DNA from: Bacillus sp. KH172YL63 | GTDB taxonomy: Bacteria > Bacillota > Bacilli > Bacillales > Bacillaceae_B | Length of the DNA: 64,000 bases | Direction of reading: 5' to 3' | Assembly: GCF_011398925.1 (NCBI RefSeq) | Contig: NZ_AP022842.1 | Coordinates: 3,150,001 to 3,214,000, forward strand | Shown here: positions 3,546 to 59,062 of the stretch, piece by piece | How positions within the stretch are numbered: the first letter of the stretch is position 1 | Layout of the letters: each line of letters starts with the position of its first letter | Notes under the pieces: generated by a model | Databases searched by the model: none | Seen by the model: only the letters and a program-made list of their open reading frames with translations | Told to the model about the DNA's origin: nothing | Program-made: the position numbers and the translations under genes

Positions 3546-3815
3546 AAATAAAAAAACCCCATCCCAAAAAGGGACGAGGTTTATATCGCGGTACCACCCT
3601 TATAAGTATATCCACAGGGGGATACACTCACTTCATTCGGATAACGGCTTTGCCGGTGCATCTTTACATTCAGCGAACTGAATGGTCCCGATGCCAACTC
3701 GAGAGGTGAAATCTTCGCATCACGGTTTCTTAAGAATGCTTTCAGTCCAGGACATTCTCTCCCTTAAAGAAGTGCATGTGCTACTTTCCTCTTTCAACGT
3801 TTTTAAGTTATATGT
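3546..3815 (-). ncRNA. T-box leader of pheST (Phe specifier)
   Basis: tRNA-sensing attenuator on the minus strand. The conserved T-box AGGGTGGTACCGCG is at 3587-3600 and is followed by a terminator (AACCTCGTCCC / GGGATGGGGTT, then a U run) at 3551-3582. A TTC triplet at 3708-3710 is followed by ACCTCT. The thrS leader has ACC at the same place before the same ACCTCT, which marks these triplets as specifier codons for Phe and Thr. Uncharged tRNA-Phe should stabilise the antiterminator and allow pheST transcription. Confidence 0.93.
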
Positions 3816-5792: not shown

Positions 5793-5923
5793 CCGTTATA
5801 TGAGCCGGTTTCGGACTCTTATGAGCGGGTTTTCGAATTTATGAGCAGGTTTCACGATTTATGAGCCCGGATCCACATATATGAGCCGCTTCCCTTGTTT
5901 TATGATCACTTTGTCGAAAATCC
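5793..5923 (-). repeat. Family A phased array, copy A1
   Basis: Read on the minus strand: GATTTTCGACAAAG (5908-5923), then six TCATA boxes. On the plus strand they appear as TATGAG/TATGAT starting at 5799, 5820, 5840, 5860, 5880 and 5901, that is 21-20-20-20-21 bp apart. Spacers of about 10 bp differ from other copies. It sits between two convergent genes. This is the only inverted copy in the window and lacks one T in the leading motif. Confidence 0.9.
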
Positions 5924-8149: not shown

Positions 8150-8160
8150 GGGTTGTTGGT

Positions 8161-8270
8161 TTCGCCGTTAAAATCGGGATTTCGCCGTTATTTTCAGGAT
8201 TTCGCCGTTAAAATGAAAATTTCGCCGTTATATCGAGAATTTCGCCGTTAAATGAATATTTTCGCCGTTA
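8161..8270 (+). repeat. Family B phased array, copy B1
   Basis: Six perfect TTCGCCGTTA boxes at 8161, 8181, 8201, 8221, 8241 and 8261, exactly 20 bp apart, with variable 10-bp spacers. The base after each box alternates A, T, A, T, A, T. It lies between convergent ysdB and the TVP38-type gene. Confidence 0.97.
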
Positions 8271-8326
8271 TCCCCCTTACAGGACACCTAATCAGGAGTC
8301 TGGAAGGGGGTAATTTTTTGTGCAAC

Positions 8327-10617: not shown

Positions 10618-10780
10618 CTTAGCGCACAAAAAAAGATGCGAGTGTCGAAACACCCGCACCTGATTATTAAGCATATATATAGGCTTTAATAGTCAATCAC
10701 ATACCTGCCAACAGCATAAATGCGTCATTCAGGTGAGAAGCGGGTAGCTTCTGCTTGTACCAAACTGTATTCAATTCACC
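10618..10780 (-). ncRNA. L20-type leader and attenuator of infC operon
   Basis: Long 5' leader between the promoter and infC. It ends in a strong terminator: GTGCGGGTGT, loop TTCG, ACACTCGCAT, then eight T (about 10624-10660, minus strand). Position and layout match the L20-controlled attenuator of B. subtilis infC. The L20-binding secondary structure itself was not folded. Confidence 0.8.
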
Positions 10781-25462: not shown

Positions 25463-25592
25463 GCGATTTTTCGACAAAGAGATTATATATGGAGGAAAGC
25501 GGATCATATATCAGGATCTCCGCTCATAAATTCAAAATCGAGCTCATATTATCTGAAAGCAGCTCAAAAGTCTTGAAAACCGGCTCATATAT
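25463..25592 (+). repeat. Family A phased array, copy A2
   Basis: GATTTTTCGACAAAGA at 25465, then TCATA-type boxes at 25483 (TTATA), 25504, 25524, 25544, 25564 (TCAAA) and 25585: spacing 21-20-20-20-21. The left flank (25395-25462) is almost only G and T with some A. Confidence 0.92.
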
Positions 25593-25952
25593 CGGGCTGG
25601 GGCATGATTTTCTTTCCCGCACAATCTATTTTCAGATGATGTTGTACGTCATTCTTCATTTCTTATAAAAAAATAGACTGGTTTTGAACAAAAGCCCTTT
25701 AAAATTTGTAATTTAAAGATCTTTTCGTATAGTTGTTTTCGTAGTGATTAACGTAATTCAAGTAAATTCCCCTTGATGCCTGCTATGGAATTTTTTCATT
25801 CTACAGTCTCAAATTACCGAAGTTGCTCACATGAACGTCTAATAATAACACCAATCTATACAAAAAGAGCCTTTCACAAACCCCCCAGCCATATTCCCCA
25901 AAATAAAAACCCCCGCAAAACAGGCAACACCCATTTCACGAGAGTCTTCATA
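25593..25952. other. Intergenic region without a recognised gene
   Basis: About 360 bp between array A2 and the hflC stop. AT-rich to about 25860, then A/C-rich (CCCCCCAGCC, CCCCCGC). I see no open frame with a ribosome-binding site, no convincing hairpin and no further array. Confidence 0.5.
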
Positions 25953-38019: not shown

Positions 38020-38267
38020 ATTGCGTGAGATTGGCTAGGTATTGCGTGAGAATCGGGGTTGATTGCGTGAGAATCAGACTTTATTGCGGGACTTTTGGAC
38101 TTTATTGCGTAATTGAAGGTGCGGCGTGAATGCAGTCAACATTTGTAACGAAATTTAACTGTCGCGCCTCATTTTTCGTCGTTCATAAGGTTAAAGTTGT
38201 GACGTAATTGGGAAAATCGCTGTTTTCAAAGGGTGATCACTATTGTGGACCATGCTCCCAGAAGCTA
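38020..38267 (+). repeat. Family C phased array C1 in first 248-bp tandem unit
   Basis: ATTGCG boxes at 38020, 38041, 38062, 38083 and 38104, all 21 bp apart, then about 150 bp of unit sequence (GGCGTGAATGCAGTCA ... ATGCTCCCAGAAG). The same unit restarts at 38268 and 38516. Confidence 0.93.
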
Positions 38268-38515
38268 ATTGCGTCACTTTCGCCATTTATTGCGTGAGAA
38301 TCCGAGTTTATTGCGTGAGAACCAGACTTTATTGCGCGACTTTCGTACTTTATTGCGTAATTGAAGGTTCGGCGTGAATGCAGTCATCTTTCGTACCGGA
38401 ATTTAACTGTCACGCATCATTTTTCATCATGAATCGAAATAAAGTAATCCCGTTATTGAAAAAACACCTGTTTTTACAGGTCAATCACTACTACAACCCA
38501 TGCTCCCAGAAGCTA
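38268..38515 (+). repeat. Family C phased array C2 in second tandem unit
   Basis: Boxes at 38268, 38289, 38310, 38331 and 38352, 21 bp apart. The unit is exactly 248 bp from C1 and is closely related to it along its length, with spacers differing more than boxes. Confidence 0.93.
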
Positions 38516-38650
38516 ATTGCGTAACTTTCACCACTTATTGCGTGAGAATCCCAGTTAATTGCGTGAAAACCACACTCTATTGCGCGACTTTCCAACTTTA
38601 TTGCGTAATTGGGGTGTGGCGTGAATGCAGCACTTTCCAACCCTCGCCCA
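38516..38650 (+). repeat. Family C phased array C3, partial third unit
   Basis: Boxes at 38516, 38537, 38558, 38579 and 38600, 21 bp apart; again 248 bp after C2. The unit breaks off after GGCGTGAATGCAG and a C/A-rich tract follows to the pyk terminator. Confidence 0.93.
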
Positions 38651-50176: not shown

Positions 50177-50292
50177 GTGGGACCTGCTGGGAGGTGGGTC
50201 TTTTTTTGGTTGGGGATGGGTGGGTGAGGGGATGTGGCTGGTTGGGGGCGTGGTGCTGGTGCTGGTGGGGTGGCGCTGGGGGCGTGGGCGTA
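50177..50292. other. G/T-rich stretch after ytrI
   Basis: Plus strand almost without A and C (for example GGTTGGGGATGGGTGGGTGAGG). No gene or hairpin seen. It leads directly into array A3. Confidence 0.6.
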
Positions 50293-50422
50293 GCGATTTT
50301 TCGACAAAGAGATCATATATCTGGAGAAGAGGATCATATTTTAAAAATCCAGCTCATATAAAAAAATTCGAGCTCATATATTTGGAAAGCTGCTCATAAG
50401 TTCGGGAAAGTGGCTCATATAT
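50293..50422 (+). repeat. Family A phased array, copy A3
   Basis: GATTTTTCGACAAAGA at 50295; TCATA boxes at 50313, 50334, 50354, 50374, 50394 and 50415: 21-20-20-20-21. Left half of a 316-bp tandem duplication with A4; it is almost identical to A4 including spacers. Confidence 0.95.
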
Positions 50423-50608
50423 GGATGGGGGGGTGGGAAGATTCGTGGTTTACGGGTTCAGATGAGCTTGTAGCGGTTGTGGGTTTGATGGTTTTTATTA
50501 AAACAGGGGTAATTTTGGGTTGGTTTTTGGTTGAAATGGGGGTTTGGAGTTGATTTAAAGAGAAGAGCTGGTTGGGGATCGGTGTGTGGAGCGTGGCGCT
50601 GGGGCGTA
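50423..50608. repeat. Tail of array A3 (first copy of tandem duplication)
   Basis: Contains GGGAAGATTCGTGGTTTACG, then GAGCTTGTAGCGGTTGTGGG, GATGGTTTTTATTAAAACAG and GGGTAATTTTGGGTTGG, all repeated after A4 and, diverged, after A5. No open frame with a ribosome-binding site. Confidence 0.75.
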
Positions 50609-50738
50609 GCGATTTTTCGACAAAGAGATCATATATCTGGAGAAGAGGATCATATTTTAAAAATCCAGCTCATATAAAAAAATTCGAGATCATATATTTG
50701 GAAAGCTGCTCATAAGTTCGGGAAACCGGCTCATATAT
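50609..50738 (+). repeat. Family A phased array, copy A4
   Basis: GATTTTTCGACAAAGA at 50611; boxes at 50629, 50650, 50670, 50690, 50710 and 50731: 21-20-20-20-21. Exactly 316 bp from A3. Box 4 reads GATCATA where A3 has GCTCATA. Confidence 0.95.
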
Positions 50739-51047
50739 GGCTTGGGGCTGGGAAGATTCGTGGTTTACGGGTTCAGCTGAGCTGGTAGCGGTTGTGGGTT
50801 TGATGGTTTTTATTAAAACAGGGGTAATTTTGGGTTGGTTTTTAATAAAAATAGAGTCTTACAATTGATTTGAGGGAAGAAACTGCTTGGTAGATAGACC
50901 GTTGTGAGATACCGGGAGCATTTATTTATAGAAATAGGCAGATTTTGATCGATAAACGTGGCTTGTGAGAGGTTCTTTAACAGTTCAATAGAGAGATTAA
51001 ATATTACATAAGATCTTGGTTAAAGTGGACCACCGGTATTTTTTATG
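50739..51047. other. Tail of array A4 and unassigned intergenic DNA
   Basis: To about 50870 this repeats the A3 tail. The rest (50870-51047) is AT-rich with no gene, hairpin or array that I can support. Confidence 0.55.
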
Positions 51048-51159
51048 ATTGCGTCGTTTTTCAAGGTAATTGCGTCATTATTTTATTTATTGCGTCGTTT
51101 TGGAGGCGAATTGCGTCTCAAGTGGCGGTCATTGCGTCTGTTCGATTAGTTATTGCGTA
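51048..51159 (+). repeat. Family C phased array, copy C4
   Basis: Six ATTGCGT boxes at 51048, 51069, 51089, 51110, 51131 and 51152 (spacing 21-20-21-21-21). The last box touches the stop codon of the frameshifted hydrolase. It is not followed by the 248-bp unit sequence seen in C1-C3. Confidence 0.93.
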
Positions 51160-52004
51160 TTATCCCATTATTATCCACTCCCGTATGACCTCTCCCACCT
51201 GCTCCGGACAATCCCAATGCACATTATGTTGCGTGTTCTCAATCCCGACTATTTTCACACCCTTCACTTCCTCCTGCAGTTTCTCAATCCCTTTCTGACG
51301 TGAAGGGTCATCATGCGGAATGGTAGCATGAAAGAGCAAAGCGGGACATTCAATGGATGGGTACGTCGTGGAACATGGTTCAAGGTAAAATGCTTTGATG
51401 GTTGCAAGGAGGCTGTCCCTGTCCGCTTTCAATTGATAAAAGCCATCCACCTTTACAAAATTAGATGAAATCATCTTCTCGAGCAGATGATCCCACTGCC
51501 GTGTGGTGTACGCTTTGTATGTGTCCACTACTTTTTCCCAGGAACTATATCTGCCTCCATCAAAATACTCTGCCCAATCGGAAAGGGCCTGCTCTTCCGA
51601 ATACCCCACAACCATTTCAGGGAAAACATACCCTCCGTCTATTAATGTAAGCCCCTTGATTCTGTCAGGGAATGTCGCTCCGATATGCAATGACAGGTCG
51701 GCACCCCAGGAGTGGCCCAACACATAGACTGCTTCAGACGTCACCTGCTGATGACTGCCATGATCCGTTTTGCTAATGAGGAAAAATGATAGTCTTCCTC
51801 CCTATCAAGTGGAGCGGTTGTTCCATGACCGGGAAGATCCACCAGCAGGATATGAAAATCGTTCCGCAGATACCCGGCAAGTTCTAGGAAGCTGTTGGCT
51901 TCGGCGGTCATGCCGTGCAGGCATATGAGTGTCGGGAGTTGTCGGTCACCGGTTTCATAAACAAAGAAGGTATGGTTGTCCATCTTGATTGCGTGTTGTT
52001 TCAT
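51160..52004 (-). pseudogene. Alpha/beta hydrolase, frameshifted
   Basis: Two abutting frames make one alpha/beta hydrolase. The first part (52004 to 51741) has the oxyanion motif LICLHGMTAEANSF and LVDLPGHG. The second (to 51160) has the nucleophile elbow LGHSWGADLS, Asp region and final His in ENTQHNVHWDCPEQV. They meet at 51741-51744, where the frame moves by one base; reading through gives HQQVTSEAVYVLGHSWG in the expected place, so a one-base indel near 51745-51760 broke the gene. A sequencing error or programmed shift is possible. ATG 52004 follows GGGGAGGGG. Confidence 0.75.
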
Positions 52005-53700: not shown

Positions 53701-53828
53701 GATTTTTCGACAAACAGATCATATATCCTGACAACTGGATCATATTTTAAAATTCCAGCTCATAAAAAAAAATTCCGGCTCATAAATTTGAAAAGCCGCT
53801 CATAAGTTCGGGAAACCGGCTCATATAT
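53701..53828 (+). repeat. Family A phased array, copy A5
   Basis: GATTTTTCGACAAACA at 53701; boxes at 53719, 53740, 53760, 53780, 53800 and 53820: the last steps are 20, 20 and 20 or 21 depending on whether the CT before the final TCATA at 53821 is counted; measured on TCATA it is 21-20-20-20-21. It lies between divergent genes. Confidence 0.93.
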
Positions 53829-54122
53829 GGATGGGGGCAGGGTTATCTCGCCGATTATGGGTTCAACTGAGCTTGTAATGGTTCCCGTTTTGATGGTTTT
53901 CATAAAAATAAGGGTAATATGGGTTTGGTTTTCATTAAAATAGAGTATTTTGTCTTTAAAACTTAAAAGCCTGATCCCCTATCAACTCAAGGGTCGGACC
54001 AAACGGAGGACTCATTTTAGTTATATACACTCCTCCATATTTAACCGAAAAAACTTTTTCTTTTACATAAAGTAACTCCCCCAAGAAGATAGTAAGAACA
54101 AAGACCTAAAGGAGACCCCACC
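53829..54122. other. Tail of array A5 and upstream region of propeller gene
   Basis: GGGTTCAACTGAGCTTGTAA, GATGGTTTTCATAAAAATAA and GGGTAATATGGGTTTGG are diverged versions of the A3/A4 tail. From about 53960 to 54122 the DNA is unique and must hold the promoter of the propeller gene, which I cannot place. Confidence 0.55.
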
Positions 54123-55370: not shown

Positions 55371-55500
55371 GCGATTTTTCGACAAAGAGATCATATATAG
55401 AGGATGGCGGCTCATATATCAGGATTCGCGCTCATATTTTGCTGAAACGGCTTATAAATCCGGAAAGGGGATCATAAGTTGGGGAAACCGGCTCATAAGT
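55371..55500 (+). repeat. Family A phased array, copy A6
   Basis: GATTTTTCGACAAAGA at 55373; boxes at 55391, 55412, 55432, 55452 (TTATA), 55472 and 55493: 21-20-20-20-21. Starts 33 bp after the propeller gene stop, between convergent genes. Spacers differ strongly from A3-A5. Confidence 0.95.
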
Positions 55501-55586
55501 GCGACCTGGAGAGGTTTTTTCGGTGATTTGAAGTTCTCTTGAGCTTGAAAGAGGTTGGGATTTGCCCGTTCCTTCAAAAAAATGAC

Positions 55587-58853: not shown

Positions 58854-58888
58854 TGCATGTCTCCTCTTGATGCTGCGCAAAAGCACCG

Positions 58889-58998
58889 TTCGCCGATAAA
58901 ATTCGAATAACGCCGTTATATTTTAAATTTCGCCGTTAAAATAATATTTTCGCCGTTATATCCAGGATTTCGCCGTTAAATTAAATATTTCGCCGATA
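58889..58998 (+). repeat. Family B phased array, copy B2
   Basis: CGCCG cores at 58891, 58911, 58931, 58951, 58971 and 58991, exactly 20 bp apart. Boxes 2-5 read (T/A)CGCCGTTA, boxes 1 and 6 read TTCGCCGATA. As in B1, the base after the box alternates A, T, A, T, A. A C/A-rich tract (58999-59060) follows. Confidence 0.97.
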
Positions 58999-59062
58999 AC
59001 CCCTATCCCGCCTCTAAAAACCACAGCCACACAACCCCTCCCAACCCCCATATACCATTCTT

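What the first reader, a model, noticed from the sequence alone, without database searches (positions are those of the whole stretch)
25463..25592. Family A: six copies of a six-box array with invariant 21-20-20-20-21 spacing
Copies at 5793 (inverted), 25463, 50293, 50609, 53701 and 55371 each have GATTTTTCGACAAAG, then 17-18 bp later the first of six TCATA boxes. I measured the box spacing in each: always 21-20-20-20-21. Boxes are conserved by position (box 1 GATCATATAT, box 5 mostly CTCATAAGT, box 6 CTCATATA), and the spacer before box 6 is close to GGGAAACCG, while other spacers differ widely. Two-helical-turn spacing puts every box on one DNA face, so a filament or nucleoid protein site, a phased bend, or a mobile repeat whose form is selected are all possible. 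No open frame runs through it, as the spacing is not a multiple of three. I know of no named element like this.
Basis: seen in the sequence. Interest (0 to 1): 0.88.

Follow-up and report, generated by a model that had tools for sequence, protein, structure and literature searches.

The report
Phased six-box DNA arrays in Bacillales
Dozens of gaps between genes in this Bacillus-like bacterium carry a ruler-like DNA pattern, usually six short words two helix turns apart beside a stretch predicted to be bent; the words change between species while the ruler stays, which hints at a DNA-binding protein system not yet identified.

Summary
In detail: all six window copies have six TCATA boxes spaced 21-20-20-20-21; 60 shuffles gave none. 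Genome-wide the spacing is not invariant: about 33 arrays, mostly six boxes (range 1-7), intervals 20 or 21 bp. The unit is GNTCATAWAT plus a variable spacer; the head, reversed, contains the Spo0A-box core TGTCGAA. New: (1) after the last box, A/T tracts run in 10.5-bp register with the array, here and in relatives, but not before the head. (2) Arrays share intergenic sites across Rossellomorea species; boxes persist better than spacers. (3) Box letter 2 has species dialects. (4) Sister species differ sharply in array number. (5) Other box words (CGCCGTTA, ATTGCGT) show the same format in the window. No RNA fold, Rfam, plasmid or phage match; no description seen in the paper listings. Best reading: selected platforms for cooperative, sequence-specific DNA-binding proteins, often after gene ends, with a bent flank. 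Protein, binding and function are not shown. Main rival: old non-autonomous mobile repeats.

The parts
5794..5923 (-). Family A array: head plus six TCATA boxes, 21-20-20-20-21, between convergent genes (isochorismatase-like gene and M42 aminopeptidase gene)
25465..25594 (+). Family A array between hflC-like gene and polA (both minus strand); boxes 1 and 5 degenerate
25595..25780 (+). flank after the 25465 array; pooled over arrays such flanks carry A/T tracts in 10.5-bp register with the array (not tested for this copy alone)
   Evidence: 27 own rows pooled; curvature model
50295..50424 (+). Family A array after the ytrI-like gene, convergent region
50611..50740 (+). Family A array, tandem copy of the previous one (period 316 bp)
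53701..53830 (+). Family A array between divergent genes (HAD-like and TolB-like)
55373..55502 (+). Family A array between convergent genes
8160..8276 (+). Family B array: six TTTCGCCGTTA boxes, 20-20-20-20-20
58888..59004 (+). Family B array: six boxes, 20-20-20-20-20, first and last box CGCCGATA
38020..38117 (+). Family C array: five ATTGCGT-type boxes at 21 bp; first of three units about 248 bp apart
38268..38365 (+). Family C array, second unit
38516..38613 (+). Family C array, third unit
51048..51166 (+). Family D array: six ATTGCGT boxes (mostly ATTGCGTC), 21-20-21-21-21, in the same intergenic region as the arrays at 50295 and 50611

Best explanation
Each array is a selected binding platform. 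A sequence-specific protein binds one box (family A: GNTCATAWAT) per 20-21 bp, so that neighbouring protomers lie on one face of the helix and can bind cooperatively; the phased A/T tracts after the last box would help the DNA bend or wrap into the complex. Families B and C/D would be the same kind of platform read by proteins of other specificity. The complexes often sit just after gene ends, where they could act as architectural or topological marks between genes; in family A the Spo0A-like head could tie the complex to sporulation entry. Shown: periodicity, box conservation, phased flank, polarity of family A and B, shared sites, species dialects, sharp differences in array number between sisters. 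Inferred: a trans-acting protein; cooperative binding; wrapping. Not shown: which protein, that it binds, and any effect in the cell.
For: Six window arrays against 0 in 60 shuffles. Box versus spacer identity in 8 cross-species pairs with equal box number (0.79-0.95 against 0.34-0.81 left- or 0.49-0.91 right-aligned; sites). Dialect of box letter 2: own C 66%, T 0% (173 boxes), G005 C 73%, G008 C 80%, G021 C 76%; G007, G004, G035 C 2-8%, T 23-27%; G022 C 0%, T 41% (12 boxes); G002, G009, G006 A 90-100%. Register after the array in 27 own rows (A p 0.007; T and W none of 300 jitters as strong) and 23 relative rows (none of 300), and not before the head (p 0.14-0.85); family B likewise (15 arrays, after none of 300, before p 0.22). 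Predicted curvature of the 150 bp after the array 1.263 against 1.120 for shuffles in own, 1.186 against 1.121 in relatives. Sister species with and without arrays: G028 19 model hits, G031 1; G005 23, G025 and G026 0. Other words in the same format.
Against: No protein is identified; among the Pfam families listed for flanking ORFs (25 of 88, 25 of 161) no candidate reader stands out, two LacI-type regulators being the only recurrent DNA-binding family seen. Dialects could arise by conversion between arrays, and G028 is intermediate (A 65, C 18, T 15%). Box conservation is biased upwards because arrays were recognised by their boxes, and some of the 8 pairs share members. Own rows in the register test include tandem copies. 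256 of 299 order genomes had no family A match at E 0.001, so the function is dispensable. The head is missing in 8 of 8 G081, 6 of 7 G002 and 5 of 6 G009 arrays. For C/D the register is stronger before the array (none of 300) than after it (p 0.037). Near-identical repeats in some genera (L223, L227) look like minisatellites. The 7 changes on the tree may be gains as well as losses.
Confidence: 0.5

Rival explanations
1. Old non-autonomous mobile elements: a roughly 280-450 bp MITE-like unit whose boxes are (or were) transposase-binding sites, as in the multi-site ends of Tn7-like or IS21-like elements (recalled). Dialects reflect transposase evolution, family loss reflects loss of the transposase.
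For: Scattered intergenic copies; tandem copies 306-327 bp apart (positions); at polA-hflC the gap is about 280 bases longer in G035 than in G007 and about 450 longer in own than in G031, which lack the array (own also holds another repeat there); patchy distribution.
Against: By eye no terminal inverted repeats or target duplication at polA-hflC; no transposase among the families listed for flanking ORFs (capped lists); shared-site copies keep boxes better than spacers, not expected after neutral insertion; at the site remnants decay gradually.
Confidence: 0.22
2. Spo0A-linked regulatory modules: Spo0A~P binds the head and nucleates a second factor on the boxes to control neighbouring genes at sporulation.
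For: The reversed head TTTGTCGAAAAATC contains the TGTCGAA core (PMC3485338, passages read); a head is found in 27 of 28 own arrays; the 12-mer TTTTTCGACAAA occurs 29 times in own against 5 for the reversed control.
Against: Only 5 of 28 own context rows lie between divergent genes. Families B and C/D have no such head in the arrays printed, nor do G081 and most G002/G009 arrays. In several array-poor species the 12-mer is no commoner than its control (e.g. G016 6 against 8, G020 11 against 14, G033 10 against 16).
Confidence: 0.1
3. Chromosomal iteron arrays: sites resembling plasmid origins (initiator box, direct iterons two turns apart, AT-rich bent flank; recalled) that titrate or couple a plasmid or phage initiator protein.
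For: Format resembles iteron origins; iteron cooperativity is abolished when two iterons are separated by half a helical turn (PMC4980987, passage read); several box words would fit several replicons.
Against: No match of one A array, a relative's array (L223), B or C in 72,556 plasmid records or of A in 50,697 phage records; B, C, D were not searched in phages and D not in plasmids; exact B and C patterns 0 in viral contigs; shared old sites.
Confidence: 0.08
4. Intergenic minisatellites that arose by slippage, with no recognised function.
For: Some genera have near-identical tandem copies (L223 18 units, L227 16 units); many species have no arrays.
Against: Same GNTCATA word across genera with different second halves (loci chosen by a model of that word); box conservation and register at shared sites; register in the flank outside the repeat.
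Confidence: 0.06

Closest known systems
Iteron arrays of theta plasmid origins (Rep-binding direct repeats)
   Same: Direct repeats about two helical turns apart, several per array, next to AT-rich or bent DNA (recalled; phase dependence of cooperativity read in PMC4980987)
   Different: Dozens of copies per chromosome, several unrelated box words, no plasmid match for the arrays searched
[quoted passage not shown] the cyanobacterial SDR work it cites is recalled, not read)
   Same: Units of about 20 bp, dispersed, tandem
   Different: Fixed box word with free spacer, box number mostly six, head and phased flank; comparison of sequences not made
REP/BIME elements of enterobacteria (recalled)
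   Same: Dispersed, intergenic, often at 3' ends of genes, many copies per genome
   Different: REP are palindromes; these are direct boxes with no predicted RNA consensus structure
RemA operator of the Bacillus subtilis eps promoter (PMC8481266, passages read)
   Same: Repetitive AT-rich direct sites in helical phase; ring-shaped protein thought to wrap DNA
   Different: There six 7-bp protections with 3-bp gaps upstream of a promoter; here 20-21 bp, mostly after gene ends, with a conserved word
Multi-site ends of Tn7-like transposons (recalled)
   Same: Several transposase sites about 20 bp apart in one orientation
   Different: No terminal repeats or target duplication seen by eye at one site; no transposase among listed neighbours
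LrpC/Lrp-type wrapping sites (recalled; LrpC mentioned in PMC8481266)
   Same: Oligomers proposed to wrap DNA
   Different: No six-box word array known to me

Membership tests
Rfam RNA families | covariance-model match at gathering score | tested here: not met
   only a T-box and an L20 leader in the window
Structured RNA element | consensus fold with covariation | tested here: not met
   0 pairs in 21 six-box arrays
REP/BIME | palindromic unit | tested here: not met
   units are direct repeats; 0 pairs in the consensus fold
MITE / transposon end | terminal inverted repeats and target duplication at an empty/filled site pair | tested here: inconclusive
   polA-hflC comparison by eye: neither seen, flanks diverged
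MITE / transposon end | autonomous partner with transposase | tested here: inconclusive
   none among the 25 families listed of 88 and of 161; whole genome not checked
Iteron origin | adjacent or cognate Rep initiator | tested here: inconclusive
   none among the families listed for flanking ORFs; genome-wide Rep search not run
Iteron origin | presence on plasmids | tested here: not met
   no match (blastn, low-complexity filter on); family D not searched
Spo0A box | TGTCGAA core | tested here: met
   head reversed TTTGTCGAAAAATC; core read; in 48 aligned heads six core letters invariant and the seventh in 47, though many rows were fetched with a head pattern
Spo0A box | bound by Spo0A | not testable with these tools
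   needs ChIP or gel shift
RemA operator | about 10-bp periodic direct sites upstream of a promoter | tested here: not met
   20-21 bp period and mostly after gene ends; RemA binding itself not tested
Phased A-tract bend | A/T tracts in 10-10.5 bp register | tested here: met
   flank after family A and B arrays; curvature is a model prediction

The most novel reading that the evidence does not exclude
Bacillales chromosomes carry an unrecognised class of two-turn box arrays, polar and with a phased bent flank, in several box languages. Each language is read by its own cooperative DNA-binding protein. Languages drift species by species across unlinked sites and can be lost or replaced wholesale while the geometry (about six boxes, 20-21 bp) stays: a diversified, co-evolving chromosome-marking system.
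Probability: 0.35. Interest if true: 0.93.

Novelty: categorically new. Interest (0 to 1): 0.85.

Why it matters
If right, an order of well-studied bacteria has a chromosomal DNA-protein system of which I saw no description in the listings of my paper searches (open-licence papers only). The dialects and the sister-species differences make it directly testable: the unknown protein should be present where the arrays are, missing or changed where they are lost, and altered in its reading surface where the dialect changed. It would also give natural site sets for asking how cooperative filaments or wraps read DNA in helical phase, and whether gene ends carry architectural marks.

Tried and rejected
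RNA element: rejected, 0 consensus pairs, no Rfam match. Recently mobile element: not supported, shared sites and gradual decay. Phage or plasmid origin: no match. Viral contigs: 13 stretches, read by eye: mostly AT-rich or short simple repeats; L257 and L263/L264 are 21-bp tandem repeats holding TCATA, not pursued; B and C patterns 0. Phylum: 2 of 398 genomes (G000, G081), both of this order; only 7 of the 398 are of this order. Exact long pattern in named genomes: 0. Gapped pattern in named genomes: 25 stretches, 14 in Rossellomorea or 'Bacillus sp. BHET2', 11 single hits in distant MAGs taken as chance. Dropped rows: eight MAG loci and L066 were left out, as were arrays under four boxes (under five's curvature test); the overall spacing tally (67 arrays) still holds 10 such rows, its first/middle/last tallies none. 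Of 33 shared-site pairs printed, 9 have equal box number; one is the same genome twice (identical) and was dropped, 8 were scored (7 of them already); 24 with unequal number were not scored. Gene beside the arrays: 67 and 102 ORFs scanned, 25 of 88 and 25 of 161 families listed; the commonest is a PheT domain in 3. PADLOC on the first set only: one reverse transcriptase. Array itself as the bend: not supported in own, slight in relatives. Clustering on the chromosome: 27 merged sites, largest gap 975 kb (p 0.03), sum of squares p 0.003, 10 sites within 3.15-3.39 Mb, unexplained. Terminator just before the head: own 10 of 27 same strand, 4 opposite, 0 and 1 after the array; relatives 3 and 2 before, 3 and 3 after, so a tendency in own only. 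The EM fit only led to the register test. Context rows count one array (L060) twice and tandem copies singly; gene calls are crude longest ORFs. Paper searches were judged from listings (40 of 147 papers listed), except passages in PMC3485338, PMC8481266, PMC4980987 and PMC2884548.

Full report
WHAT WAS CHECKED. The head search found exact copies of GATTTTTCGACAAAG at 25465, 50295, 50611 and 55373, one mismatch at 53701 and two mismatches on the minus strand at 5909-5923. Each of the six is followed by six TCATA-like boxes at 21-20-20-20-21. Scoring six boxes with any 20/21 spacing, the window has 6 arrays at 27 of 30 letters or more and 60 dinucleotide shuffles have none; the best shuffle scored 23, the best array 30.

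GENOME-WIDE ANATOMY. The window is 3150001-3214000 of a single 4.25 Mb contig. BLAST with one array gave 44 matches at E up to 10; a head pattern with up to 3 mismatches gave 32 (control 0). Of 30 loci read from that list, 21 have six boxes, 3 seven, 2 five, 2 two and 2 one; 10 of the 21 have exactly 21-20-20-20-21. One search adds three places (near 2335006, 3219880 and 3526530), about 33 in all. In pooled own and related arrays of four or more boxes, middle intervals are 20 in 136 of 153, the last is 21 in 41 of 51 and the first 20 in 30 of 51. The box is G-N-T-C-A-T-A-W-A-T.

THE HEAD. Reversed, the head reads TTTGTCGAAAAATC and contains the Spo0A core TGTCGAA (PMC3485338, passages read). 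A head is found in 27 of 28 own arrays. The 12-mer TTTTTCGACAAA occurs 29 times in this genome against 5 for the reversed control. Array-poor species have about 6 to 14, above the control in most but not all: G016 6 against 8, G017 6 against 8, G020 11 against 14, G033 10 against 16, G034 9 against 16. Binding by Spo0A is not shown.

A PHASED FLANK. After the last box (14-200 bp), A/T tracts run in register with the array at about 10.5 bp: own rows (27, tandem copies included) A p 0.007, T and W none of 300 jitter nulls as strong; relatives (23) none of 300 for A, T or W. The flank before the head shows no register (p 0.14 to 0.85). A wedge-angle model (angles recalled) predicts curvature in the 150 bp after the array: own 1.263 against 1.120 for shuffles, 85% above; relatives 1.186 against 1.121, 76% above. 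The array alone is near its shuffles in own (1.118 against 1.106) and slightly above in relatives (1.129 against 1.095); the 150 bp before it are not curved. The element is thus polar: head, boxes, phased flank.

GENE CONTEXT. By a crude ORF call the head side faces the 3' end of a same-strand gene in 21 of 28 own rows and 15 of 23 relatives; 14 of 28 own rows lie between convergent genes, 5 between divergent ones, against 5 convergent and 6 divergent of 36 gaps in the window. A terminator-like hairpin lies within 150 bp before the head on the same strand in 10 of 27 own rows and none after the array; in relatives there is no such bias (3 of 23 before, 3 after). Among the Pfam families listed for 67 and 102 nearby ORFs (25 of 88, 25 of 161) there is no transposase; the commonest is a PheT domain in three ORFs, and LacI-type regulators appear in two.

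SHARED SITES, KEPT BOXES. The genus is Rossellomorea, inferred from named loci and equal contig lengths. Arrays sit at the same site and orientation in two to four species. In the 8 scored cross-species pairs with equal box number, box letters 1-7 agree at 0.79-0.95, spacers at 0.34-0.81 left-aligned or 0.49-0.91 right-aligned; the box is higher in all 8. Arrays were found by their boxes and some pairs share members, so the gap is somewhat inflated. At one site printed for 26 species, three have intact arrays, one a headless degenerate one, four remnants, and the other 18 none or a doubtful trace. At polA-hflC, read in 30 species, own, G021 and G035 have arrays, G022 a remnant, the rest no head.

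DIALECTS AND LOSSES. Letter 2 of the box is C 66% and T 0% in own (173 boxes), C 73-80% in G005, G008 and G021, but C 2-8% and T 23-27% in G007, G004 and G035, C 0% and T 41% in G022 (12 boxes); G028 is intermediate (A 65, C 18, T 15%), and G002, G009 and G006 are A 90-100% (arrays taken from a capped hit list). G004, G007, G022 and G035 form a clade on a polA tree of 30 of the 36 genomes. Related species differ sharply in hits to the array model: G028 19, G031 1; G005 23, G025 and G026 0. With 7 hits as the threshold the tree needs 7 changes (shuffled labels 10.1; 15 of 500 as low), gains or losses; the shared sites favour losses. Unlinked sites shifting together suggest a trans-acting reader; gene conversion between arrays is not excluded.

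WIDER OCCURRENCE. The model finds matches in 24 of 36 genus genomes at E 0.01 and 43 of 299 order genomes (23 of 116 genera) at E 0.001, outside the genus mostly by the units and not the head. Some arrays are long and nearly identical, such as 18 units in L223 and 16 in L227. Outside the order 0 of 391 genomes of the phylum sample matched a three-box pattern.

OTHER BOX LANGUAGES. The same window has two six-box CGCCGTTA arrays at exactly 20 bp, three five-box ATTGCGT-type arrays at 21 bp in units about 248 bp apart, and one six-box ATTGCGTC-type array; 60 shuffles gave none for either word. A three-box CGCCGTTA pattern matches 36 times in this genome (control 0) and in 4 of 299 order genomes; ATTGCGT matches 66 times (control 0) and in 10 of 299, including G031 (44) and G025 (39), which have 1 and 0 family A hits. 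All six own family B arrays read are six boxes at 20 bp. Fifteen family B arrays have register after the array (none of 300 nulls as strong) and not before (p 0.22); for 24 C/D arrays it is stronger before (none of 300) than after (p 0.037), so their polarity may be reversed or mixed.

WHAT WAS NOT FOUND. No RNA fold, no Rfam family, no plasmid or phage relative of the arrays searched, no convincing viral match. Searches of the paper library for the box strings and for the topic, judged from listings, showed no description; PMC2884548 (passages) mentions 20-bp small dispersed repeats as a category, which is the nearest literature seen.

JUDGEMENT. The most economical reading is a selected protein platform: one protomer per two turns, cooperative on one face, with a bent flank, often placed after genes. 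Iteron origins (PMC4980987, passage), RemA operators (PMC8481266, passages) and transposon ends work in similar ways; none could be assigned here, some of their features being not met and others untested. The reader protein, its binding and its effect are open.

Noticed in passing
window 25741-25880: A different repeat of about 135 bp with 7 further copies in the genome (82-91% identity), beside the family A array in polA-hflC.
   Followed up: no
L158, L162, L167 (G025, G026, G005), polA-hflC intergenic: Boxes like AACTTGTGCCAC at about 20-21 bp where other species have family A arrays: a possible further box language (L167 also).
   Followed up: partly
window 50180-50290 and other upstream flanks: G/T-rich, A-poor stretch before several own arrays.
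   Followed up: no
window 38040-38637: 248-bp tandem unit, 2.4 copies, holding a five-box array plus a similar tail in each unit.
   Followed up: partly
window 3567-3806 and 10624-10762, minus strand: T-box leader and ribosomal protein L20 leader.
   Followed up: no
one ORF of the 67 beside own arrays (alignment A3): A reverse transcriptase gene near one array; relation unknown.
   Followed up: no
L071, L187 (G009, G002): Arrays alternate GATCATA and GATCGTA boxes, giving a 40-bp super-period, beside an RNase HIII-type gene in L187.
   Followed up: no
own genome, 3.15-3.39 Mb: 10 of 27 merged family A sites fall in this stretch, with a 975-kb stretch elsewhere free of them.
   Followed up: partly
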